DNA from: Phycisphaerales bacterium
Lineage (GTDB): Bacteria > Planctomycetota > Phycisphaerae > UBA1845
Length of the DNA: 60,340 nt
Assembly (NCBI GenBank): GCA_013140575.1
Contig: JABFSN010000179.1
Span: forward strand, 1 to 60,340
Direction of reading: 5' to 3'
Part shown: positions 39,594-55,272 of the stretch, in pieces
Layout: every line of letters starts with the position of its first letter
How positions within the stretch are numbered: position 1 is the first letter of the stretch
Notes under the pieces: model-generated
What the model saw: the letters and a program-made list of their open reading frames with translations, nothing else
The model's database searches: none
Told to the model about the DNA's origin: nothing
Translations under genes and position numbers: made by a program

Positions 39594-42500
39594 ATGAAAT
39601 CGAGGTTTTTGGACATTCTGGCGGAGCGGGTGCTGGTTTTCGACGGGGCCGCCGGCACAAGCGTCCACGCCTACGACCTGTCGCTGGCGGACTACGACGG
39701 GCACGAAAACTGCGTGGACATCGTGGTCAAGACCCGTCCGGACGTGGTGGCGGAGATTCACCGGTCGTTTCTGGAAGTGGGCAGCGACGTGGTGATGACG
39801 AACACGTTCGGGGCCAACAAGCTGGTGCTGGGCGAGTTTGGGATTTCGGAATTGACCACGCCGCTGAATCGCCAGGCGGCCGAGATCGCGCGGACGGAAT
39901 GTGCGCGGTTAACGACGAAGGACAAGCCGCGGTTCGTGATCGGATCGATGGGACCGGGGACGCGGTTGCCCTCGTTGCGGCAGACGACGTGGGACACGCT
40001 GGTAGACAGCTACACGGCGCAGGCGCGGGGGCTGATCGCGGGCGGCGTCGACGGTCTTTTGGTGGAGACGTGTCAGGACATTCTGCAAGCGAAGGCGGCG
40101 ATCGTGGCGTGCATGGACGCCATGGCGGCGGCGAAGGTCGAATTGCCGATTCTGTGCACGGTCACGATCGAAACAACGGGCACGATGCTGGTGGGGACGG
40201 AAATGGCCGCGGCGATCGTGGCGCTGGAGGCGTACGACGCGGTGCGGGTGTTGGGAATCAACTGCGCGACGGGTCCGCAGGAGATGAGCGAACACGTCAG
40301 GCAACTGGCGTCGTCGAGCGACCGGCTGTTGCTGGTGCAGCCCAATGCGGGACTGCCGCAACTGGTGGACGGCAAGCCGCATTACGCGCTGACGCCAGAT
40401 GAATTCACGCGCTGGCTGGTCGAGTTCGTGGAGGCCGACGGGGTGAACGCGGTGGGCGGCTGTTGCGGCACGAGTCCGGCGCACCTGCGGAAGCTGGTGG
40501 AGGCCATCGGCACGCGGGCGCCGCGGCCACGAAAGTTGCGGCGCGAGCCGAGCGTGAGCAGTCTATACCAGGCGGTGCCGGTGCGCCAGGACAACAGTTT
40601 TCTGATCATCGGGGAGCGAAGCAACACCAACGGGTCGCGGAAGTTCAAGCGTCTGCTGCTGGACGGGGACATCGACAATCTGGTGGCCATGGGGCGGGAG
40701 CAGGTGTCGCAGGGTGCGCACGTCCTGGACGTGTGCGTGGATTACGTGGGGCGCGACGGCGTGGCCGACATGGCCAACGTGGTCAGCCGCTATGCGCAGG
40801 ACGTGACCGTGCCGTTGATGCTGGACAGCACGGAGGCGCCGGTGATCGAGGCCGGTCTGAAGCTGGCCGGCGGGCGGTGCATCGTTAATTCCATCAACCT
40901 GGAAGAGGGCGAATCGAAGTTGGAGCGACTGTGCCCGATCATCCGGCGGTACGGGGCGGCGGTCGTGGCGTTGACGATCGACGAGCATCCCGAAGAGGCC
41001 ATGGCCAAGACGAAGGATCGCAAGCTGTCCATCGCCCGGCGATTGTTTGACCTGTGCGTGAATAAGTACGGGCTGCGGCCGCACGATCTGTTATTCGATT
41101 GCCTGACGTTTCCGATCACGACGGGGAGCGAGGCCGACCGCCGGCTGGGATTGGAAACGCTGGACGGCATCGCCGCGATCACCGAGGCACTGCCCGAATG
41201 TCACACGGTGCTTGGCGTTTCAAACGTCAGTTTCGGGTTGGCGCCGGCCGCGCGGGCGGTGCTGAATTCCGTTTTTCTGCACGAGGCCACTCGGCGGGGT
41301 CTGACGGCGGCGATCGTTCACGCGGGGGCGATATTGCCGCGGAACAAGATCAGCGACGAGCGATGGAACGCGGCGTTGGACCTGGTCTACGACCGGCGTT
41401 CGGACGGGTTTGATCCGCTGGCGCGGTATCTCGGCTTGTTCGACGAGAATGAAGAGATCGCGGTCAAGAAGGACATCACCAAACTGCCGGTCGAGGATCG
41501 GCTGAAACAGCGCATCATCAACGGCGACCGCAACGGGCTGGACGCGGACCTGACGGCCGCGCTGGGGACGTACAAGCCGTTGGACATCGTTAACGAAATC
41601 CTGCTGGACGGGATGAAGACGGTGGGCGATCTGTTCGGGGCCGGGCAGATGCAGTTGCCGTTCGTGTTGCAATCGGCCGAGACGATGAAGGCGGCGGTCG
41701 GGTTTTTGGAGCCGCTGATGGACCGCGTGGAGGGCGACACGCGCGGTTCGATCGTGTTGGCCACGGTGCGCGGCGACGTACACGACATCGGCAAGAACCT
41801 GGTGGACATTGTTCTGACCAACAACGGGTACAAGGTCTACAACCTGGGCATCAAGCAGCCGATCAGCCACATCATCGACGTCTGGCAGGAGAAAAAGGCC
41901 GATTTGATCGGATTGAGCGGGCTGCTGGTCAAGTCCACGGTGGTGATGCGCGAGAATCTGGCCGTGTTGAATGAACGCGGCCTGGATTTGCCGGTGATTC
42001 TGGGCGGGGCTGCGCTGACGCGGAAATACGTCGAGGACGATCTGCGGCAGGAATACAAGGGGCCGCTGTATTATGCGCGTGACGCGTTCGAGGGATTGAA
42101 TATCGTCAAGCGGGTGGCGTCGGGGGATCGAAGCGTGCCGCCGCCGGTCAGTCGAACGGCGAAAGAGACGCCCAAACGACGGGTGACGGATACGACGCCG
42201 CACGTGGGGCAATCGGGCATCGCCCGCGACGTGTCCGTGCCGACGCCGCCGTTCTGGGGAAGCCGTGTGGTCGAACGGATCGATCTGCGCGCGGTGCTGG
42301 CCTACATAAACGAAAACATGTTGTTCAACGTGCAATGGCAGTACAGAAAGGCCACGCGTAATCGCGACGAGTATCAGAAATATGTGGACGCGGAGGTCCG
42401 GCCGATCTACCGCAAGTTGGTGGATCGCTGCATCGCGGAGGATATTCTGCGGCCGCAGGCGGTGTATGGCTATTGGCCGTGCCAGTCGGAGGGCGACGTG

Positions 42501-43034
42501 CTGATCGTGTTCGATCCGAACGATCGGGAACGGGAAGTCGTGCGGTTCGAGTTTCCGCGTCAGGGCAAGTCGCCGTTCTGGTGTTTGAGCGATTTTTTTC
42601 GACCGATGACGGGCGGCGAGATGGACGTAGTCGCGATCATGATCGTGACCGTCGGGCAGCGGGTCAGCGAAATCGAGCGCCGGTGGTTCGCGGAGGACAA
42701 ATACGTCGACTATCTGCACCTGCACGGGCTGGGCGTGGAATCGGCCGAAGCGCTGGCGGAATACCTGCACAAGCAGGTTCGCGTCGAGTGGGGAATTGCA
42801 GAGGACGATGCCCGTGACAAACAACGCATTTTCCAACAGCGCTACCGCGGATCGCGCTACAGTTTCGGCTATCCGGCCTGTCCGCGGCTGGAGGACCAGG
42901 TCAAAATCTGGCCGTTGTTGGACCCGGAACGAATCGGCGTGACGCTGTCGGAAGAGTTCCAGCTTGATCCGGAGCAGTCGACGACGGCGTTGATTTCGCA
43001 TCACCCGGAGGCGAAATACTTCAACGTGCGATGA
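39594..43034 (+). CDS. metH: Cobalamin-dependent methionine synthase
   Basis: 1146 residues, all modules present. Homocysteine domain (1 to about 320) with zinc cysteines Cys224 (GINCATG) and Cys290-Cys291 (GGCCGTS). Pterin domain (about 335-600: IGERSNTNGSRKF, DVCVDYVGRD). Cap and B12 domain with DVHDIGKNLVDIV; His730 is the lower cobalt ligand. Reactivation domain (about 880-1146) with RYSFGYPACPRLEDQ for AdoMet. It methylates homocysteine using methyl-tetrahydrofolate. It converges with the gamma-lyase gene, 18 bases apart. Start ATG 39594. Confidence 0.97.
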   Translation: MKSRFLDILAERVLVFDGAAGTSVHAYDLSLADYDGHENCVDIVVKTRPDVVAEIHRSFLEVGSDVVMTNTFGANKLVLGEFGISELTTPLNRQAAEIARTECARLTTKDKPRFVIGSMGPGTRLPSLRQTTWDTLVDSYTAQARGLIAGGVDGLLVETCQDILQAKAAIVACMDAMAAAKVELPILCTVTIETTGTMLVGTEMAAAIVALEAYDAVRVLGINCATGPQEMSEHVRQLASSSDRLLLVQPNAGLPQLVDGKPHYALTPDEFTRWLVEFVEADGVNAVGGCCGTSPAHLRKLVEAIGTRAPRPRKLRREPSVSSLYQAVPVRQDNSFLIIGERSNTNGSRKFKRLLLDGDIDNLVAMGREQVSQGAHVLDVCVDYVGRDGVADMANVVSRYAQDVTVPLMLDSTEAPVIEAGLKLAGGRCIVNSINLEEGESKLERLCPIIRRYGAAVVALTIDEHPEEAMAKTKDRKLSIARRLFDLCVNKYGLRPHDLLFDCLTFPITTGSEADRRLGLETLDGIAAITEALPECHTVLGVSNVSFGLAPAARAVLNSVFLHEATRRGLTAAIVHAGAILPRNKISDERWNAALDLVYDRRSDGFDPLARYLGLFDENEEIAVKKDITKLPVEDRLKQRIINGDRNGLDADLTAALGTYKPLDIVNEILLDGMKTVGDLFGAGQMQLPFVLQSAETMKAAVGFLEPLMDRVEGDTRGSIVLATVRGDVHDIGKNLVDIVLTNNGYKVYNLGIKQPISHIIDVWQEKKADLIGLSGLLVKSTVVMRENLAVLNERGLDLPVILGGAALTRKYVEDDLRQEYKGPLYYARDAFEGLNIVKRVASGDRSVPPPVSRTAKETPKRRVTDTTPHVGQSGIARDVSVPTPPFWGSRVVERIDLRAVLAYINENMLFNVQWQYRKATRNRDEYQKYVDAEVRPIYRKLVDRCIAEDILRPQAVYGYWPCQSEGDVLIVFDPNDREREVVRFEFPRQGKSPFWCLSDFFRPMTGGEMDVVAIMIVTVGQRVSEIERRWFAEDKYVDYLHLHGLGVESAEALAEYLHKQVRVEWGIAEDDARDKQRIFQQRYRGSRYSFGYPACPRLEDQVKIWPLLDPERIGVTLSEEFQLDPEQSTTALISHHPEAKYFNVR

Positions 43035-43052: not shown

Positions 43053-44351
43053 CTATGCCTGCACCAACGCCGCATCAAGATCGGCCACGATATCGTGCCA
43101 GTCTTCCAATCCCAGGCTCATGCGGATTCCGCCGGGCGACAGGCCGCGGCGACGCTTCTCTTCCGCGGGCATCGCCGCGTGCGTCATGCTGTACGGCGCC
43201 TCGATCAACGTCTTGATCTGCCCCAGCGAGACGGCCAGCGTCAATGTGTAGGCGTTCCCGGCTGCCCAGTCGATGAACCGCACCGCGGGCCGACCCAGCC
43301 CCTCCGCGTCGCACAACTCGAAATAAACCATCGACCCGGGGGCGAAGTGTCCGCGGTAGTCGGTCATCTGCCGTCTGGCCAGTTCGTGTTGCGGAAACGA
43401 CGGCAGTCCGGGATAGCAGACCCGCGCCACTTTGGGGTGCGACTCCAGAAACGTCGCCACGTGCATGGCCGTCTTCTGATGATTAATCATCCGCGTCGCA
43501 AGCGTGGGCAGACCGTTGACCAGCACCGGCCACGCGCACTTGGGCGACAGAGAGCCGCCGAAATCCTTGCGATACAGAATCCACTCGCGGTGAAGACTTC
43601 TTGGTCCGATTAAGGCACCGCCCACGTCGGTTCCAAACCCACCGATGCCCTTGGTCAATGACTGGCAGACCACATCGGCGCCCCATTCCAATGGGCGCTG
43701 GCAGAAAGGCGTCGCGAATGTATTGTCCACCACGATCCAGACGCGCGCGTCTGCGTCGCGGTCGGCATTCACGGCATTGATGACGCCGCGCACGGCCGCA
43801 ATGTCAATTAGTTTCAAATCCGGATTGACGGGCGTTTCAAGATAGACGACGCGCGTGCGCGGCGTAATGGCGGTCCGCAGGGCGTCCATGTCCGACATAT
43901 CCACCAGTGAATGTTGGATGCCATAGCGGGGCAGCCACGTCGTCACCAGTGAATACGTGCACCCGTACAGAACCGCGTGCGCGACGATGTGCTCCCCCTG
44001 GTGGGCAAGCGTGCACAACGCGGCGCTGATCGCGGACATGCCCGTCGCGAAACACACGGCCACTTCCCCGCATTCCGCGTACGCCAGATTGTCTTCCAAC
44101 ATGCCCCGCGTCGGCTCGTCCAGGCGGTCGTAGATGTAGATGGGCGAATGCGTCCGGGGATCGTTGTCGTCCGCCACGTATTCCGAGAACGCCTGCGCTC
44201 CGCGCTCCGCCGACTCCAGCCGAAAAGTCGCGCTGGCCGTCATCGGCGGCACGACGTGGTGGTTATAGTCCCATCGACCGGTATGACCGACGCCGTGAAT
44301 CAGCCGCGTACGCATTCTCGGCTCATCGGATGACTGCCTCTTTAGAATCAT
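43053..44351 (-). CDS. Methionine gamma-lyase-like PLP enzyme (Cys/Met metabolism family)
   Basis: 432 residues. PLP lysine Lys234 in CQSLTKGIGGFG. Residues that mark methionine gamma-lyase are in place: Tyr74-x-Arg76 (YDR), Tyr129 and Cys131 in VLYGCTYSL (Cys116 of the Pseudomonas putida enzyme; cystathionine enzymes have Gly there), and Lys262-Asp263 in YRKDFGGSLSP (Lys240-Asp241). Expected reaction: methionine to 2-oxobutyrate, methanethiol and ammonia. Cystathionine or homocysteine activity cannot be ruled out. GGAG precedes the ATG; the upstream fused oxidoreductase gene ends 15 bases away, so one operon is likely. Confidence 0.85.
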   Translation of the reverse strand: MILKRQSSDEPRMRTRLIHGVGHTGRWDYNHHVVPPMTASATFRLESAERGAQAFSEYVADDNDPRTHSPIYIYDRLDEPTRGMLEDNLAYAECGEVAVCFATGMSAISAALCTLAHQGEHIVAHAVLYGCTYSLVTTWLPRYGIQHSLVDMSDMDALRTAITPRTRVVYLETPVNPDLKLIDIAAVRGVINAVNADRDADARVWIVVDNTFATPFCQRPLEWGADVVCQSLTKGIGGFGTDVGGALIGPRSLHREWILYRKDFGGSLSPKCAWPVLVNGLPTLATRMINHQKTAMHVATFLESHPKVARVCYPGLPSFPQHELARRQMTDYRGHFAPGSMVYFELCDAEGLGRPAVRFIDWAAGNAYTLTLAVSLGQIKTLIEAPYSMTHAAMPAEEKRRRGLSPGGIRMSLGLEDWHDIVADLDAALVQA

Positions 44352-44366
44352 CTTGCTCTCCCGCCG

Positions 44367-47300
44367 TCACAGTGCCATCAGTTCAGGCGTCGCCTGGTGC
44401 GATTCGCAGCCGCTCGATGTTTCCGCGCGGCCCGTTGACCGCGACGGGCACGCGGCACGGTGGCTCAGGTAGCGCCCCAGCGAACGCACGCACTGGTCCG
44501 CCGAGCGAAACACGGGAATGCCTTTCGCCCGCACCGTGCGCGCCAGCGCCTCGTACGGTCCGCCGCAGTCCACGACAAACACCATCGACTTCGTCGACTC
44601 TTGAAACACCTGCGCCAGACGATGGACGATGGACCCGGGCTCTTGAATCTCCAGTGCCGTCGTCAACAGCATCGGTGTCATCGGTACGCATGCAACGATC
44701 ACCGCGTCCAACTCGTCCGCCCCCACCATCACCCGCAGACAGTCTTCATACGCCGCGTCACCGGCCATCGGTGTCAAATCCAGCGGATTCCGGGCATCGA
44801 CCAGTCGCGACAGACCATGACGCTGCAATGCCTCTTCAATCCGCGCACGCGTATCGGCGGTCAACGCGGGCATCTCCACCTCATAGCGCGCCCCCTTCAC
44901 CGTGTCCGCCATGCCGACGGCCTCGTAGCCCGCATTGCTCATTGCGCCGATCCGTTTGCCGCCGACCTTCTTGCCATGCAATGACGTCGCCAGCTCCAGC
45001 AATTGCTCGAATTCCTTGAACGTGTCCGTCACAATCGCGCCCGCGGCCGCGACCGCCGCCTGACATATGTCGTAGTCCCCCGCGACGGAGGCGGTGTGCC
45101 CCCTCGCCGCCGACCGCCCCGCCGGGGTCCGCCCGGCCTTATAGAAGACGACGGTCTTGCCGAACGCGATGGCGTGCTCGACCGCCGCCAGAAACGCCAG
45201 TCCGTCAAGACGATTGAATCCCTCGACGTAGACGCCGATGCAGTCGATGTCGTCGCGCCGCCCGACTACATAGACCAGGTCCGACACAGTCACGTCGGCC
45301 TGGTTGCCGATGGAAATGGCCAGCGTCGGATCCAGGAATTCCAGATTGCTCATCCGCGTGATCAGAAACGCACCGCTCTGCGAGACGATCGCGCAGCGCC
45401 GCGGCGCCGCCTCCCTCCGTGCATCGAGCTTCGACGGTGGAATGAAAAACGTGTCGTAGCGGCCCGGCCTGGAACGCAGCCCCATACAGTTGCCACCCAG
45501 AAAAACCGGCGTCTCCGGATGCCGCCGCCGCGCCGCCTCGATGGCCTGATGGATCGCCTCCTGACTTCCCTCAGTTCCTTCCTTTTCTCCCAGCCCGCCG
45601 GGAATCAGAATCACCGACCGGCACTGCCCCGCCCGATCCGCGCCCGGCAAAACCTCTTCCACCAATGCCGGCACGCGCTCCGCCCCCGTCGCCGCCACCA
45701 GCAGATCGACCCGTTCCGGCAACGCCGATACGCTCGGTACGCAACGCACGCCGTCGATCACATCTTCACCCGGCTTGACCACGTACAACCGTTCCGCCGG
45801 GAACCCGCACGCCTGGATGTTATTCAGGATGATCCGACCGAAATTCTCCCGTTTGCCCGACACCCCCACCACCGCGATCGATTCCGGCTCGAGCATCCGC
45901 GCAACCGATTCCAGCGGCCGCGATCGCGCCGCCGCGATCGGTTCACCCAACCGACCGCGACCGTCCAGCGGCACCATCTTCCTCCCACGAAACGCGAACG
46001 GGTTGACCTCCAGTTCATCCAGACACGCCCCCCCGGCCGACGCCGCGCAGCATCGACGCGCCAAGGCGATGAACGCATTGAAACAACGCATCAACTCCGC
46101 GTCTCCGACGATGCGCTCGTGACCCCTCGCCGTCCCCGCCAGCATCGAATAGGCCGCCGTCTCCTCGAACAGCTTGAAAAACCGCTCTGGCGAGGTGTCC
46201 ATCGCCGCCGCCTTCGCCACCGCCACCCCCGCCCGCATCGCCGTGGCCAGATATTCCGTGTCCACGCCGCCCAGACCGGCCGCGATCACCGGCCCGAACT
46301 CCCGCGTCTGACGGATGCCCACGAACAGCTCGCTGCCCAGCCCGTGTCCCGCCTCCTCCACAAACTCGACCACCAGCACCCCCGCGACCGCCTGCGCCAG
46401 TGCTTTCGCATCGTCCGTCATTCGCTCGACGGCCCGGCGCACGGCGACCACGTCCTTGGAAACGAATGCAACGCCACCCGCTTCCGTCTTGTGCACCACA
46501 TCCGGCGACACCAGCTTCAACACCACCCGCTCACCGGCCATGCGTGCCAGCTCCGCGGGTTCGATGAATGTCCCATCCGGTAGGAAAACATGCCGCGCCG
46601 GGCTGATGGCCCCCGCCAGCTCCACGATGCGATACACTTCGTGCTCGAAAAGTTGGACACGTCCTTGCCGCCGCGTCTCGTTCAGAAGCCCGTCGATTTC
46701 CCGGCCCGCCTCGTCCGACAGGGCGCACGACGGCGCCCGCGGCACAAAAGGGTGGTCGTCTCCCCCGGCGGCCGAAAACCGGTCGTTCGGGATCGTCTCC
46801 ACCCACTTCCGCAAGTACCGGCTCGTTTGCCCGCCGCGCAGCCCTTCGCGAAACACCTCGGCCGCAAACCGCCCCATGCGCAACGCACGCCGGTTGATCT
46901 CCACGACGCGCTCGCCCTTGGCCGCGAACATGGCGTGAATCAGCTTTTCGAATGACGCGACGGGTAGATTCAGAAACAGCGTCGCCGCCCCCAGCACCAC
47001 CACGTTTTCCGCTTTCGACGATCCCGCCAGCCGCGCCAACCGCTGTGCGTCGATCAACACGTGATCGCCCAACTGCCCGATCCGATCCAGCACGTTGTCG
47101 ATCGGCGGATAGTCGCGGATGTTCGCGAATGGGGTCACGCCCGCGACCACAACGCTGCGATCGCCCAGGTAGTTCGTGTAGCGCAACGCCTCCAGCGGCT
47201 CGACGGACACGAGCAGGTCCGCCTGCCCTTCGGGAATCAAGTCGCTGTGGATCGCATGGTCCGCGAACCGGAGATGGGCTTGCACCGCCCCGCCGCGCTG

Positions 47301-47426
47301 GCTCATCCCATGCACTTCCGACTGCTTGACGTGGTAACCCTGCTCCAGCGCCACCCGCGAAATCGCCGCTGCAATGGTCAGAATGCCCTGTCCGCCGACT
47401 CCGGCCAACAGCACGTTGCATTCCAT
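44367..47426 (-). CDS. iorB: Fusion: 2-oxoacid (indolepyruvate-type) oxidoreductase beta subunit + ADP-forming acyl-CoA synthetase
   Basis: 1019 residues in three parts. 1-215 is an IorB/gamma-type subunit (LLAGVGGQGILT, SEVHGMSQRGGAVQAHLRF). About 235-495 is an ATP-grasp (ACD beta) domain with His312 in VHKTEAGGV and LDELEVNPF. About 508-1000 is the CoA-binding plus ligase (ACD alpha) part with VVGVSGKRENFGR, VSQSGAF and the phospho-His777 in RGHTASVAGD. So the acyl-CoA made by the oxidoreductase can be turned into acid plus ATP by the same chain. The beta part precedes the alpha part, the reverse of the common bacterial fusions. Good GGGAGG site; starts 3 bases after the iorA stop. Confidence 0.92.
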   Translation of the reverse strand: MECNVLLAGVGGQGILTIAAAISRVALEQGYHVKQSEVHGMSQRGGAVQAHLRFADHAIHSDLIPEGQADLLVSVEPLEALRYTNYLGDRSVVVAGVTPFANIRDYPPIDNVLDRIGQLGDHVLIDAQRLARLAGSSKAENVVVLGAATLFLNLPVASFEKLIHAMFAAKGERVVEINRRALRMGRFAAEVFREGLRGGQTSRYLRKWVETIPNDRFSAAGGDDHPFVPRAPSCALSDEAGREIDGLLNETRRQGRVQLFEHEVYRIVELAGAISPARHVFLPDGTFIEPAELARMAGERVVLKLVSPDVVHKTEAGGVAFVSKDVVAVRRAVERMTDDAKALAQAVAGVLVVEFVEEAGHGLGSELFVGIRQTREFGPVIAAGLGGVDTEYLATAMRAGVAVAKAAAMDTSPERFFKLFEETAAYSMLAGTARGHERIVGDAELMRCFNAFIALARRCCAASAGGACLDELEVNPFAFRGRKMVPLDGRGRLGEPIAAARSRPLESVARMLEPESIAVVGVSGKRENFGRIILNNIQACGFPAERLYVVKPGEDVIDGVRCVPSVSALPERVDLLVAATGAERVPALVEEVLPGADRAGQCRSVILIPGGLGEKEGTEGSQEAIHQAIEAARRRHPETPVFLGGNCMGLRSRPGRYDTFFIPPSKLDARREAAPRRCAIVSQSGAFLITRMSNLEFLDPTLAISIGNQADVTVSDLVYVVGRRDDIDCIGVYVEGFNRLDGLAFLAAVEHAIAFGKTVVFYKAGRTPAGRSAARGHTASVAGDYDICQAAVAAAGAIVTDTFKEFEQLLELATSLHGKKVGGKRIGAMSNAGYEAVGMADTVKGARYEVEMPALTADTRARIEEALQRHGLSRLVDARNPLDLTPMAGDAAYEDCLRVMVGADELDAVIVACVPMTPMLLTTALEIQEPGSIVHRLAQVFQESTKSMVFVVDCGGPYEALARTVRAKGIPVFRSADQCVRSLGRYLSHRAACPSRSTGRAETSSGCESHQATPELMAL

Positions 47427-47429
47427 AAT

Positions 47430-49082
47430 TCATCCTCCCGCCGCGATGACCGCCGTCTCCCCCTTCGTGCCTCCCTGTCCCCGTCCCTCCGTCCCTTCGT
47501 CCCTCTGTCCCTTCCTCTTCGCATGAATGCACGCCCGCTGCGTCACCACCACCGACAAACCTCGATGGCCGATCTCCCGTCGGATCAGCTCCACGTTTCG
47601 CGGATGCGCCGTCGGAACCGGGTCCAACTCCACCAGATGTTCCGGCCGAACCCCCAACCCGCGGATGATGCGGATCAAATCCGGCCCGGTTGCGAACACC
47701 TCCTGCCCGCCGGTCATGGCCACCAGTGCGTTGTCCAGGATCACCACGGTCATGTTCAAATCGTCGTGTACGGCGCCGATCAACCCCGTCATCCCCGAAT
47801 GGACAAACGTCGAATCGCCGATCGTCGCCACCACCGGATGCGCCCCCGCCTTCGCCGCCCCGATGGCCATGCTGATCGACGCCCCCATGTCCACGCACGA
47901 GTCGATGGCGTTGTACGGCGGCAACGCCGCCAGCGAATAACAGCCGATGTCGCTGAAAAAATACGGCTGTCCAGCGCCCGCCCCCTGCGCCGCCTCCACC
48001 ACCGCCCCATACGTGTCGCAATGCGGGCATCCCTGACACAACTGCGGCGGCCGCCCCGGAATGTCCATCACCACCGGGGTCGGACACGCGACGCGCCCTT
48101 CCAGCACCGCCCGGATGATGTCCGTCGTCAATTCACCCTGCCCCGGCAGCGTGCCGTCCAGTTTTCCACGGATCGACTTGCCCGGCACGCCCATCAGTCC
48201 GACCAGTTGCCGCTCAACCAGCGGATAACCCTCCTCGATGACCAGCACGTCGGTGCAGTGATCCACCAGCCGCCGAACCATCCCGGCCGGCACGGGATAG
48301 ACGCCCAGTTTCAAAACCGAATAGCCGTCAGCCCCGGCCGACGCCTCGCGGAAGTAGTTATTCGCCAAACCCGTTACGATGACCCCTTTCGGACCGCGCA
48401 ACGTCAGCCGGTTGAATCCTGACAATGTTGCGTAGTCCTGCATCGGCGGCTGCATTTCCAACAACCGCCCGTAACGCTTCCGCGCATTAACCGGCAGCAG
48501 CGTCCATTCCCGCCAGTCCGTCACCCGCCCGCGCGGCAGCGGCTCGACAGCCGGACGGGTCGTGATGTCCGCACGGCTGTGCGCCAACCGCGTCACCAAC
48601 CGTAACATCACCGGCAGTCCGAAACGCTCCGATGCCTGGAACGCTTCGCGGGTCATGTCGTACGCCTCCTGTTGATCGCCCGGCTCGAACACCGGAATCT
48701 GCGCGAACTGCCCGTAGAAACGGCTGTCCTGCTCGTTCTGCGACGAGTGCATCCCCGGATCGTCCGCCACGGCCAGCACCAGCCCCCCGTTCGCTCCCGT
48801 CAGCGACGAGCTCATGAACGGATCGGCGGCCACGTTCAGCCCCACGTGTTTCATCGAAACAAGCGCCCGCTTCCCGACGAACGACATGCCCATGGCCTCC
48901 TCGTAGGCCACCTTCTCGTTCGCCGACCAGCGCGCGACCAGCGTCCGGCCGCGCCCCGCGTGACGTTGCACGAACTCGAAAATCTCCGTCGCCGGCGTCC
49001 CCGGATACGAAAACGCCCCGCCGATCCCGGAATGGATCGCCCCCAATGCGACCGCCTCGTCACCCATCAATAATTCAATCAT
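47430..49082 (-). CDS. iorA: 2-oxoacid (indolepyruvate-type) oxidoreductase alpha subunit lacking ferredoxin domain
   Basis: 550 residues. N-terminal pyrimidine domain (LLMGDEAVALGAIHSGIGGAFSYPGTP, SANEKVAYEEAMGMSF, KHVGLNVAADPFM), middle domain, then the TPP domain with CQGCPHCDTYGAV, FFSDIGCYSL, and GDSTFVHSGMTGL...DNALVAMTGGQ. IorA proteins usually end in a 2[4Fe-4S] ferredoxin module; here the chain stops after VVVTQRACIHAKRKGQ with a low-complexity Gly/Glu/Arg/Thr tail. Electrons must therefore leave by another route. Co-translated with the fused beta subunit. The true 2-oxoacid is not fixed by sequence. Confidence 0.92.
   Translation of the reverse strand: MIELLMGDEAVALGAIHSGIGGAFSYPGTPATEIFEFVQRHAGRGRTLVARWSANEKVAYEEAMGMSFVGKRALVSMKHVGLNVAADPFMSSSLTGANGGLVLAVADDPGMHSSQNEQDSRFYGQFAQIPVFEPGDQQEAYDMTREAFQASERFGLPVMLRLVTRLAHSRADITTRPAVEPLPRGRVTDWREWTLLPVNARKRYGRLLEMQPPMQDYATLSGFNRLTLRGPKGVIVTGLANNYFREASAGADGYSVLKLGVYPVPAGMVRRLVDHCTDVLVIEEGYPLVERQLVGLMGVPGKSIRGKLDGTLPGQGELTTDIIRAVLEGRVACPTPVVMDIPGRPPQLCQGCPHCDTYGAVVEAAQGAGAGQPYFFSDIGCYSLAALPPYNAIDSCVDMGASISMAIGAAKAGAHPVVATIGDSTFVHSGMTGLIGAVHDDLNMTVVILDNALVAMTGGQEVFATGPDLIRIIRGLGVRPEHLVELDPVPTAHPRNVELIRREIGHRGLSVVVTQRACIHAKRKGQRDEGTEGRGQGGTKGETAVIAAGG
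47440..47520. repeat. Purine-rich simple repeat inside the 3' end of iorA
   Basis: On the minus strand a loose run of GGGACRRA words (GGGACAGAGGGACGAAGGGA and so on) codes for the Gly/Glu/Thr tail. The base make-up differs from the rest of the gene. A weaker patch of the same kind (coding EKEGTEG) is inside the fused beta gene near 45570-45600. Confidence 0.6.
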
Positions 49083-49354: not shown

Positions 49355-50653
49355 CTAAAACGAAAACCGGGCCCGTACTCCCGCGACGATCCCCGATTCG
49401 ATCGCGCCGTCGGTGCCCGGGTTGTCGAGGTACTGAACGTCCATCGTCACGACCAAGTACTTGGCGACCTGTACGGCATAGAACAGCTCGTAGATCAGCT
49501 CCTTGTCGGCGGACGACCGGACTCGGCGGCGATAGTCGTTCGATGTCCGCGGCATGGCCATCCCGAACCCCAGCACGTCGTCATTTCGACCGGGGACAAT
49601 TCCCTGGTAGGTGAATCCGGCCGACGCGAAACGCCCCATCGCGTTGGTTTCCGGCGTGCGATAACCCAAACGTGCGAAGACCCCCAACCCCTGTCCGTCC
49701 GCACTCGATTCGCGATACACCATCTGGTCCATACTTGCGTACGCACCGTAATCGTCGCCGTCCAGCGAACGGTCGTTCCGCGTTACGTTCGCCCGGGGCC
49801 GCGGATCGAAAACGACGCCGACGCGGTAGTTCCCCTCGCACGGTCCCGGTTTCGACGGAATCGTCACGTGAACCGTTTGCTCCGCGTACGCGAACCAGCG
49901 GTTTTCGTCGTGAAACGCCGTTGAAAACCCCGGCTTGTACAAAACCGACTGCGCGTCGCCGACGCCCACGGTCAACGCGTACCATTCCGCCGGACGAAAC
50001 GCCACCGACGCCCCCAGTCCGATGTTCAATGGAACCAGCGGGTTGTTGTCCAGCGCCTGGCTCATGAACTGTTTGTCTTCACTATTGGCGAACGCATTAC
50101 GATCGACGATCGTCTGGTAATCGAGGAACCCGACGGTCAACGCGATCCGCCGTTCCCAGAAATGCTGCCGGTACCACAGTTGGGCCACGTGCAGCCCCAG
50201 GTCGCCGTCCGCATCGTCGTTGACCTCAAGCCGCGACCCCGTCCGCGCGTTGATTCCCGCCCCCCAATTGGATTGCACGTGCAACAACACGTCGGCGTCG
50301 TTGATAATCTCCAGCTTGTCCAGATCGAACGTCAGAAACGCATCCATCGACGCCGAATTCCGACCCGACCCGCTCGCATCCGCACCGTCGTTCACCACCG
50401 CCTGATATTGATCGTTAACAAACAGGTGGAACGCGACGCCGCGTTCTTCCAACGCGTCGCGGATTTCGGACATCCCCGCGGCAGCACGACCATCGGGCGC
50501 CGCGGCGGATGGAACCGGTGGCCACGCCGACGCGATGCCGCCCGGCATGGGGTCAATTTGCCCGCCGCCGCACACGCGGCCGGCATCGGCGAACAAGACC
50601 ACCAGCGCCGCCGCGACCAGGCGGACCGGGACTTTCCGACTGCACGTACACAC
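49355..50653 (-). CDS. OprB-like carbohydrate porin
   Basis: About 432 residues from GTG 50653, which has AGG 6 bases upstream and gives a signal peptide (KVPVRLVAAALVVLFADAG). Then a beta-barrel with OprB-family features: FLTFDLDKLEIINDADVLLHVQSNWG, LGLHVAQLWYRQHFWERRIALTVGFLDYQTIVDRNAFAN, FMSQALDNNPLVPLNIGLGA, and a C-terminal Phe (VRARFSF). Longer frames to 50767 or 50869 put up to 72 residues in front of the signal and seem wrong. Outer-membrane sugar uptake is the family role; substrate unknown. Divergent from the hybrid kinase. Confidence 0.85.
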   Translation of the reverse strand: MCTCSRKVPVRLVAAALVVLFADAGRVCGGGQIDPMPGGIASAWPPVPSAAAPDGRAAAGMSEIRDALEERGVAFHLFVNDQYQAVVNDGADASGSGRNSASMDAFLTFDLDKLEIINDADVLLHVQSNWGAGINARTGSRLEVNDDADGDLGLHVAQLWYRQHFWERRIALTVGFLDYQTIVDRNAFANSEDKQFMSQALDNNPLVPLNIGLGASVAFRPAEWYALTVGVGDAQSVLYKPGFSTAFHDENRWFAYAEQTVHVTIPSKPGPCEGNYRVGVVFDPRPRANVTRNDRSLDGDDYGAYASMDQMVYRESSADGQGLGVFARLGYRTPETNAMGRFASAGFTYQGIVPGRNDDVLGFGMAMPRTSNDYRRRVRSSADKELIYELFYAVQVAKYLVVTMDVQYLDNPGTDGAIESGIVAGVRARFSF

Positions 50654-50895
50654 CCTTGACCTGCTACACGTGCCGTACCAAACAAATAACTCCGTTTCGG
50701 AGTCAATCCGTGCCACCCGTTCGGTCGTTGGCTCCGGTGCCGGCTGCCAACCACTGTTTGTTTTCATGGATTCATCGCAATGATTATAAGACTTGGACAC
50801 GATGCGCTTCGCCGATCGAGAACACTTCCTGTACAATCCCAACCCGGTCCGGTATTGCCTCCATTCCATTCATGACCGGGGCCGAGGTGCGTCCC

Positions 50896-55272
<4,377 letters not shown>

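What the first reader, a model, noticed from the sequence alone, without database searches (positions are those of the whole stretch)
43053..49082. A compact operon that could burn methionine to ATP in three proteins
Seen: three same-strand genes with gaps of 3 and 15 bases: oxidoreductase alpha subunit, beta subunit fused to an ADP-forming acyl-CoA synthetase, and a gamma-lyase with methionine gamma-lyase marker residues. Known: anaerobic protists such as Entamoeba make 2-oxobutyrate with methionine gamma-lyase, oxidise it to propionyl-CoA with a 2-oxoacid:ferredoxin oxidoreductase and gain ATP with an ADP-forming synthetase. Inferred: this operon joins these steps in one bacterial unit (methionine to propionate + ATP + methanethiol + reduced carrier).
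Basis: partly seen in the sequence, partly recalled or inferred. Interest (0 to 1): 0.8.

Follow-up and report, generated by a model that had tools for sequence, protein, structure and literature searches.

The report
Bacterial amino-acid-to-ATP gene trio
A planctomycete carries, side by side, genes for a keto-acid-oxidising enzyme fused to an ATP-making enzyme and for an enzyme that cuts sulphur amino acids; together they probably turn a sulphur amino acid such as methionine into a small acid, reducing power and ATP, but which amino acid they really use is unproven.

Summary
In detail: three minus-strand genes (iorA-like; iorB fused to an ADP-forming acyl-CoA synthetase, ACD; gamma-lyase) with gaps of 3 and 15 bases. 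The same tight order occurs in a second genome of the family. The core is a two-gene unit, iorA plus iorB:ACD, found as full-length fusion in 31 genomes of the class. Its IorA clade lacks the C-terminal ferredoxin domain (34 of 34 relatives) but keeps four cysteines that I read as the inner Fe-S site. The lyase is an add-on from a divergent methionine-gamma-lyase-like clade in several phyla; YGC and KD markers are nearly invariant, but it scores below NCBI's MGL cut-off. Unexpectedly, within the class this lyase lies within 7.5 kb of a 2-oxoacid:ferredoxin oxidoreductase in 12 of 35 genomes (0.43 expected by random placement), beside three oxidoreductase types; a different MGL-like gene follows the fusion in a third genome. 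This supports a gamma-lyase feeding 2-oxobutyrate into ferredoxin-linked oxidation and ATP formation. Against the three-protein reading: tested IOR-clade enzymes prefer aromatic 2-oxoacids, an external electron acceptor is needed, and fusion and lyase usually occur apart. New variant of a known kind; substrates untested.

The parts
47430..49082 (-). iorA-like 2-oxoacid:acceptor oxidoreductase alpha subunit (550 aa) without the C-terminal 2[4Fe-4S] ferredoxin domain
   Evidence: POR_N, TPP_enzyme_C, TIGR03336 492.5 bits (cut-off 650.9 not met), match ends at 540/595; no four-Cys ferredoxin motif in 34 of 34 relatives
48027..48038 (-). codons of Cys349 and Cys352 (CxxC), proposed ligands of the inner [4Fe-4S] cluster; the others are Cys381 (47940-47942) and Cys518 (47529-47531)
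   Evidence: all four Cys in 32 of 32 fusion-clade and 6 of 6 canonical IorA sequences; the ligand role is inferred from recalled OFOR structures
44367..47426 (-). iorB:ACD fusion (1019 aa): IOR beta (POR domain) joined to an ADP-forming acyl-CoA synthetase
46857..47426 (-). IorB domain, residues 1-190
   Evidence: POR 107 bits; NF005324 243.6 bits (cut-off 222 met)
45957..46673 (-). ATP-grasp domain of the synthetase, residues 252-490, with His312 (46491-46493)
   Evidence: 92.8 bits; His312 in 41 of 41 aligned relatives; aligns with the HK(T/S)D motif of solved ADP-forming ligases
44994..45881 (-). CoA-binding domain (residues 516-650) and succinyl-CoA-ligase-like domain (676-811) with the candidate phosphohistidine His777 (45096-45098)
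   Evidence: His777 in 39 of 39 relatives that cover it; aligns with the SHTGS/SHTGA motif of solved ligases
43053..44351 (-). Cys/Met-metabolism PLP gamma-lyase of a divergent methionine-gamma-lyase-like clade (432 aa)
43959..43961 (-). codon of Cys131 in YGC (equivalent to P. putida MGL Cys116)
   Evidence: Cys in 69 of 71 distinct relatives, Ser in 2
43563..43568 (-). codons of Lys262-Asp263 (KD, equivalent to Lys240-Asp241); PLP lysine Lys234 at 43650-43652
   Evidence: KD in 71 of 71 relatives; phmmer aligns KD with KD of two solved MGLs

Best explanation
The operon is an amino-acid-catabolic extension of a conserved two-gene energy unit. Core unit (shown by domains and conservation): an IOR-type 2-oxoacid oxidoreductase, whose alpha subunit keeps the thiamine diphosphate domains and four conserved cysteines (read as the inner Fe-S site) but lacks the ferredoxin domain, and a beta subunit fused to an ADP-forming acyl-CoA synthetase. 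It should convert 2-oxoacid + CoA to acyl-CoA + CO2 + reduced external ferredoxin, and acyl-CoA + ADP + Pi to acid + ATP, possibly handing acyl-CoA across the fusion (inferred). The third gene, a PLP gamma-lyase of a methionine-gamma-lyase-like clade, splits a sulphur amino acid (methionine likeliest; homocysteine or cystathionine possible) to 2-oxobutyrate, ammonia and a thiol (inferred from residues). 2-Oxobutyrate is then oxidised by this or another ferredoxin-dependent oxidoreductase of the cell to propionyl-CoA and on to propionate + ATP, or via methylmalonyl-CoA mutase, for which this genome has a gene.
For: Gene order and gaps and its recurrence in G047. Full-length fusion in 31 genomes of the class, three of them with one in-frame stop in the match; synthetase His312 in 41/41 and His777 in 39/39 aligned relatives. 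YGC in 69/71 and KD in 71/71 lyase relatives, the published methioninase filter (PMC11568061 section 5). Lyase clade beside three types of 2-oxoacid:ferredoxin oxidoreductase: IOR:ACD (window, L043), PFOR plus VOR-like (L195-L198), POR with or without malic enzyme (L200, L203, L204, L207); within 7.5 kb in 12 of 35 genomes and 6 of 22 genera, 0.43 genomes expected, against 2 of 35 for MetH and 4 of 62 for cystathionine-lyase-type genes. A different MGL-like gene follows the same fusion in G041 (L049; best solved relatives are MGLs). Malic enzyme, another maker of a short 2-oxoacid, stands directly upstream of iorA in L047 and further upstream in L053. Own genome: NiFe hydrogenase and methylmalonyl-CoA mutase matches.
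Against: Lyase below the TIGR01328 cut-off and on a long branch. Of 45 named relatives whose titles do not name Planctomycetota or Phycisphaerae, none had an oxidoreductase marker nearby. Fusion and lyase are mostly apart: 21 of 31 full-length-fusion genomes had no hit of the lyase clade, and 8 of the 10 that have it carry it on another contig. Tested IOR-clade enzymes prefer aromatic 2-oxoacids. The MGL-like gene of G041 lacks both YGC and KD. The 7.5 kb threshold was set after seeing the data (10 of 35 at 5 kb), and the cystathionine-lyase control is itself above random expectation in one group of related genomes.
Confidence: 0.55

Rival explanations
1. Arylpyruvate unit with a neighbour. 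The core oxidises phenyl-, hydroxyphenyl- or indolepyruvate to aryl-acetates with ATP, as in archaeal and clostridial aromatic amino acid fermentation; the lyase is merely co-regulated as another amino acid degrading enzyme and its 2-oxobutyrate goes to one of the other oxidoreductases of the cell.
For: Best families are IOR alpha and beta. Three active enzymes of the aromatic (PPFOR/IOR) clade preferred aromatic 2-oxoacids (PMC13290082 section 35); in Peptostreptococcales many IOR and VOR genes lie near either phosphotransacylase plus kinase or an ADP-forming ligase (PMC13285125, passages). The genome has three other POR_N loci.
Against: No aromatic aminotransferase or aryl-CoA gene was recognised beside the fusion in the loci read (most neighbours were not identified); the recognised metabolic neighbours make short aliphatic 2-oxoacids (malic enzyme in L047 and L053, gamma-lyases in the window, L043, L049). 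The clade is far from canonical IorA of its own relatives (33-35% identity) and lacks the ferredoxin domain.
Confidence: 0.3
2. Parallel methionine routes. Methionine is transaminated elsewhere to 4-methylthio-2-oxobutyrate, which the IOR:ACD unit turns into 3-methylthiopropionate + ATP, while the lyase drains surplus methionine to methanethiol.
For: Clostridium sporogenes VOR takes ketomethylthiobutyrate (PMC13290082) and Pyrococcus ACS2, which also takes aromatic acids, takes 3-methylthiopropionate (PMC3942289, passages).
Against: No aminotransferase recognised in the operon or in the short flanks of L043; needs two separate fates for one substrate.
Confidence: 0.1
3. The lyase is a sulphur-assimilation enzyme (a sulfhydrylase, cystathionine synthase or lyase type) that landed beside the fusion by chance; the convergent methionine synthase gene hints at a methionine-biosynthesis neighbourhood.
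For: metH ends 18 bases from the lyase stop; lyase identity to two solved cystathionine gamma-lyases (37%) is not far below that to two MGLs (40-41%).
Against: MGL models take the first four places of 52 matching models; YGC and KD nearly invariant over several phyla; enrichment beside three oxidoreductase types; the genome has a separate cystathionine-lyase-type gene; in the other 34 lyase genomes the best metH hit is on another contig, or more than 100 kb away in G052 and G087.
Confidence: 0.1

Closest known systems
Methionine fermentation of anaerobic protists (Entamoeba: methionine gamma-lyase, 2-oxoacid:ferredoxin oxidoreductase, ADP-forming acyl-CoA synthetase; recalled)
   Same: The same three kinds of enzyme, in the same logical order
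   Different: Here in one gene run, with the synthetase fused to the oxidoreductase beta subunit, an IOR-type rather than a PFOR-type oxidoreductase, and a divergent lyase clade; substrates unproven
Archaeal and clostridial IOR plus ADP-forming ligase (Pyrococcus IOR/ACS2; Peptostreptococcales IOR clusters; PMC3942289 and PMC13285125, passages)
   Same: IorA/IorB working with or lying near an NDP-forming acyl-CoA ligase
   Different: Ligase fused to IorB; IorA without ferredoxin domain; gamma-lyase or malic enzyme nearby and no aminotransferase recognised
Pseudomonas putida mdeA-mdeB methionine degradation operon (recalled; not found)
   Same: MGL gene beside a gene for a 2-oxobutyrate-oxidising enzyme
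   Different: There (recalled) a dehydrogenase-complex-type enzyme; here a ferredoxin-type oxidoreductase and an ADP-forming synthetase
NDP-forming acyl-CoA synthetases with solved structure (9y43, 8wzu, 4xyl)
   Same: ATP-grasp, CoA-binding and ligase domains, both histidines
   Different: Extra N-terminal IorB domain; domain order with ATP-grasp first, as in 9y43

Membership tests
Methionine gamma-lyase (EC 4.4.1.11, TIGR01328) | Active-site YGC and KD plus PLP lysine | tested here: met
   filter from PMC11568061
Methionine gamma-lyase (EC 4.4.1.11, TIGR01328) | Score over the curated equivalog cut-off | tested here: not met
   328.7 vs 549.7 bits; still the best of 52 models. Filed as MGL-like only
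Methionine gamma-lyase (EC 4.4.1.11, TIGR01328) | Releases methanethiol and 2-oxobutyrate from methionine | not testable with these tools
   needs an enzyme assay
Indolepyruvate:ferredoxin oxidoreductase (TIGR03336 / IOR beta) | POR_N + TPP domains with four cysteines shared with canonical IorA | tested here: met
Indolepyruvate:ferredoxin oxidoreductase (TIGR03336 / IOR beta) | C-terminal 2[4Fe-4S] ferredoxin domain of IorA and curated IorA cut-off | tested here: not met
   absent in the window and 34 of 34 fusion-clade relatives, present in 6 of 6 canonical IorA; 492.5 vs 650.9 bits. Filed as IOR-like variant
Indolepyruvate:ferredoxin oxidoreductase (TIGR03336 / IOR beta) | Beta subunit over the curated cut-off | tested here: met
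   NF005324 243.6 vs 222 bits
Indolepyruvate:ferredoxin oxidoreductase (TIGR03336 / IOR beta) | Arylpyruvate substrate | not testable with these tools
   needs an assay
ADP-forming acyl-CoA synthetase (ACD) | ATP-grasp, CoA-binding and ligase domains with both catalytic histidines | tested here: met
ADP-forming acyl-CoA synthetase (ACD) | Curated acetate--CoA ligase cut-off (TIGR02717) | tested here: not met
   208.3 vs 567.15 bits: not that acetate-specific equivalog; acyl specificity open
Entamoeba-type methionine-to-propionate ATP pathway | Gamma-lyase, ferredoxin-linked 2-oxobutyrate oxidation, ADP-forming ATP step | tested here: inconclusive
   all three enzyme types present by domain; 2-oxobutyrate specificity untested

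The most novel reading that the evidence does not exclude
A bacterial operon carries the whole methionine-to-propionate energy path: a new methionine gamma-lyase clade feeds 2-oxobutyrate to an IOR-derived oxidoreductase that has shifted to short aliphatic 2-oxoacids, does without a built-in ferredoxin and hands propionyl-CoA directly to a fused ATP-forming synthetase; the same oxidoreductase-synthetase core serves as an exchangeable module for pyruvate from malic enzyme in sister genomes.
Probability: 0.3. Interest if true: 0.75.

Novelty: new variant of a known kind. Interest (0 to 1): 0.58.

Why it matters
If true, it gives a compact, testable route by which little-studied planctomycetes could gain ATP from sulphur amino acids without oxygen, releasing methanethiol or sulphide; it would show a 2-oxoacid oxidoreductase physically tied to its ATP-forming partner, and it points to an overlooked gamma-lyase clade that has the YGC and KD residues but falls below the NCBI cut-off of TIGR01328, the model named in a published methioninase screen. 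The term 'planctomycet' does not occur in that paper's main text (PMC11568061).

Tried and rejected
A recurrent neighbour of the lyase clade in other phyla: nothing specific; only shadow reading frames, large common families (kinases) and one block shared by seven loci (L073, L079, L080, L082-L084, L115). An early reading that the lyase had no link to oxidoreductases except in the window and L043 was dropped: that call used only the window's own proteins as probes and missed the other oxidoreductase types found later. The cystathionine-lyase-type gene as a neutral control is imperfect, because it too can make 2-oxobutyrate and in four genomes lies near a 2-oxoacid oxidoreductase; MetH was added. 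Before the count of 62 I left out four rows: one second piece of a split gene and three that are the lyase clade itself; for MetH I took one piece per genome. Co-occurrence of fusion and lyase over the class (14 genomes with both; 46 and 35 of 397 with each) was not used as support: it is confounded by kinship, and inside the window's own family only 8 of 22 lyase genomes have a fusion or synthetase hit. Promoter and terminator scan: nothing above chance. Structure prediction was not run: I saw no way to measure substrate pockets with the outputs offered. Literature; judged from the listings, and from the passages or sections of the papers opened (PMC13285125, PMC11568061, PMC13290082, PMC3942289, PMC9986279; the last gave only a reference), none describes an iorB:ACD fusion or an MGL-oxidoreductase operon. 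The library lacks most subscription papers.
Full report
Observation. The three minus-strand genes are there as described: iorA-like 47430-49082, iorB:ACD 44367-47426, lyase 43053-44351, with gaps of 3 and 15 bases. The B12-dependent methionine synthase gene metH (39594-43034, plus strand) converges on the lyase with 18 bases between the stops. An OprB-type porin gene lies upstream on the same strand, 272 bases away (49355-50869).

Host. 

The core unit. P0002 matches over its full length (E = 0, residues about 1-3 to 990 or beyond) in 31 genomes of the class, three of them (G012, G322, G400) with one in-frame stop in the match. In the class sample 46 of 397 genomes have some match at E <= 1e-50, some of them synthetase alone, split genes or genes cut by contig ends. 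In a phylum sample 12 of 392 match at E <= 1e-100, of which three including the window's are full-length; in the two others (L238, L239) no lyase was seen in the stretch held, which for L239 is only about 500 bases beyond the fusion. I looked at 48 fetched loci with fusion or synthetase genes. Among the 31 full-length-fusion genomes the next gene is a gamma-lyase in three: the window, L043 (73% identical lyase) and L049 (a different gamma-lyase, 35% identical to the window's, 70 bases after the fusion, without YGC or KD, TIGR01328 473.8 bits, best solved relatives MGLs). No other downstream gene recurred that I recognised. The unit is preceded on the same strand by malic enzyme in L047 (33 bases), by malic enzyme and a POR set in L053, and by another oxidoreductase set in L044.

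Anatomy. IorA ends where canonical IorA goes on into a ferredoxin domain: none of 34 fusion-clade sequences shows the four-Cys motif, while all 6 canonical paralogues of the same families (33-35% identical) do. After dropping two sequences under 500 aa, Cys349, Cys352, Cys381 and Cys518 are present in 32 of 32 fusion-clade and 6 of 6 canonical sequences. I read them as the inner [4Fe-4S] site (structural role recalled), so an external ferredoxin should take the electrons. In the synthetase, His312 is present in 41 of 41 and His777 in 39 of 39 covering rows, aligned with the catalytic motifs of solved ADP-forming ligases (that these are the catalytic histidines is recalled).

The lyase. The four best NCBIfam models are methionine gamma-lyases (328.7 bits for TIGR01328), but all under their cut-offs (549.7 for TIGR01328); the best solved relatives are MGLs. 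A scan of named genomes gave 57 loci titled Planctomycetota, Acidobacteriota, KSB1, Melainabacteria and others, mostly at 57-73% identity (that scan requires exact short peptides, so it is a lower bound). Over 71 distinct relatives with at least 380 aligned residues (81 before removing identical copies; shorter or stop-containing rows dropped) the Cys of YGC is kept in 69 (Ser in 2) and KD in 71; MAFFT places KD one column off in the two solved MGLs, whereas phmmer aligns it. YGC plus KD is the filter used by PMC11568061 for methioninases (section 5 read in full). In a tree of 15 rows (three requested rows, L063, L065 and L069, were absent because identical copies stood under other ids) the clade is separated by a branch of 1.65 from MGLs and cystathionine lyases; the window's lyase is 40-41% identical to two MGLs and 37% to two cystathionine gamma-lyases.

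The unexpected link. In the class, 35 of 397 genomes have the lyase clade at E <= 1e-100. Reading 32 further neighbourhoods showed: in four genomes of one genus (G046, G048, G049, G050; G047 with the window's order is placed in the same genus), PFOR (TIGR02176, 1808 bits in L195), a dihydroorotate-dehydrogenase-like gene, the lyase, then VorB-like alpha, beta and gamma genes, with a convergent NiFe hydrogenase gene beyond (L195-L198); in another family, POR genes upstream of the lyase in L200, L203, L204, L207, with malic enzyme and a HypB-like gene further upstream in the last three; PFOR and the dehydrogenase-like gene upstream in L208; malic enzyme and a HypB-like gene in L205. In one search, 16 of 92 rows had any marker; rows include duplicates (L062 = L043, and other named contigs recur under G handles), one row (L118) had no detectable lyase, and L081 and L107 carry single non-oxidoreductase hits. 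With all POR_N places of these 35 genomes (121), an oxidoreductase lies within 7.5 kb of the lyase in 12 of 35 genomes and 6 of 22 genera; random placement predicts 0.43 genomes and 0.30 genera. The threshold was set after seeing the data; at 5 kb it is 10 of 35. By, 11 of the 12 are on the lyase's strand. Controls on the same genomes: MetH 2 of 35 (one is the window itself), cystathionine-lyase-type genes 4 of 62, the latter in related genomes of one family. Of 45 named loci whose titles do not name Planctomycetota or Phycisphaerae, none had an oxidoreductase marker, with the limits that the probes were planctomycete proteins and several contigs are short or hold only part of the lyase.

Mechanism. 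Shown: gene order, domains, catalytic residues, recurrence and enrichment. Inferred: gamma-elimination to 2-oxobutyrate, its oxidation by a ferredoxin-dependent enzyme, ATP formation by the synthetase. Open: whether this IOR-type enzyme itself takes 2-oxobutyrate. The family prior says aromatic: in PMC13290082 (section 35 read in full) the three active enzymes assigned to the aromatic clade and named by two locus tags preferred aromatic substrates. The recognised neighbours here (malic enzyme, two kinds of gamma-lyase) say short aliphatic. The genome has three other POR_N loci, a NiFe hydrogenase match and a methylmalonyl-CoA mutase match, so other fates for 2-oxobutyrate and propionyl-CoA exist.

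Verdict. A real, recurrent gene run built from known enzyme kinds in a new arrangement: the ligase fused to IorB, an IorA clade without ferredoxin domain, and a divergent MGL-like lyase that repeatedly joins 2-oxoacid oxidoreductases.

Noticed in passing
L232-L235, L237: Canonical IorA genes (with ferredoxin domain) of the same families have hydantoinase/oxoprolinase A and/or B genes close by in five of six loci read (not in L236, a short contig; Pfam-checked only in L237, elsewhere by the start of the sequence): an IOR plus HyuAB grouping whose role is unclear.
   Followed up: partly
L195-L198: PFOR, dihydroorotate-dehydrogenase-like gene, lyase and VOR-like genes form one run; beyond it, convergent, lies a NiFe hydrogenase gene whose best NCBIfam model (in L196) is a sulfhydrogenase alpha subunit, below its cut-off.
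   Followed up: partly
L203, L205, L207, L208 upstream of the lyase: A small gene similar to a DUF4405 protein (weakly like hydrogenase cytochrome b) stands directly before the lyase.
   Followed up: no
L044:252-2513: A POR (gamma-type) domain fused to Fer4_20 and pyridine-nucleotide reductase domains, suggesting an NAD(P)-linked 2-oxoacid oxidoreductase next to the iorA-iorB:ACD unit.
   Followed up: no
L056, L057, L058, L060, L156: The synthetase part was matched alone, without the IorB part nearby, in several relatives.
   Followed up: no
window 50509-55272 (+): Hybrid sensor kinase with regulator-propeller, PAS, HisKA, receiver and Hpt domains, on the opposite strand next to the OprB-type porin gene.
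   Followed up: no
L049:5042-6304 (-), genome G041: MGL-like gamma-lyase with YGP instead of YGC and without KD, directly after the same kind of fusion.
   Followed up: partly
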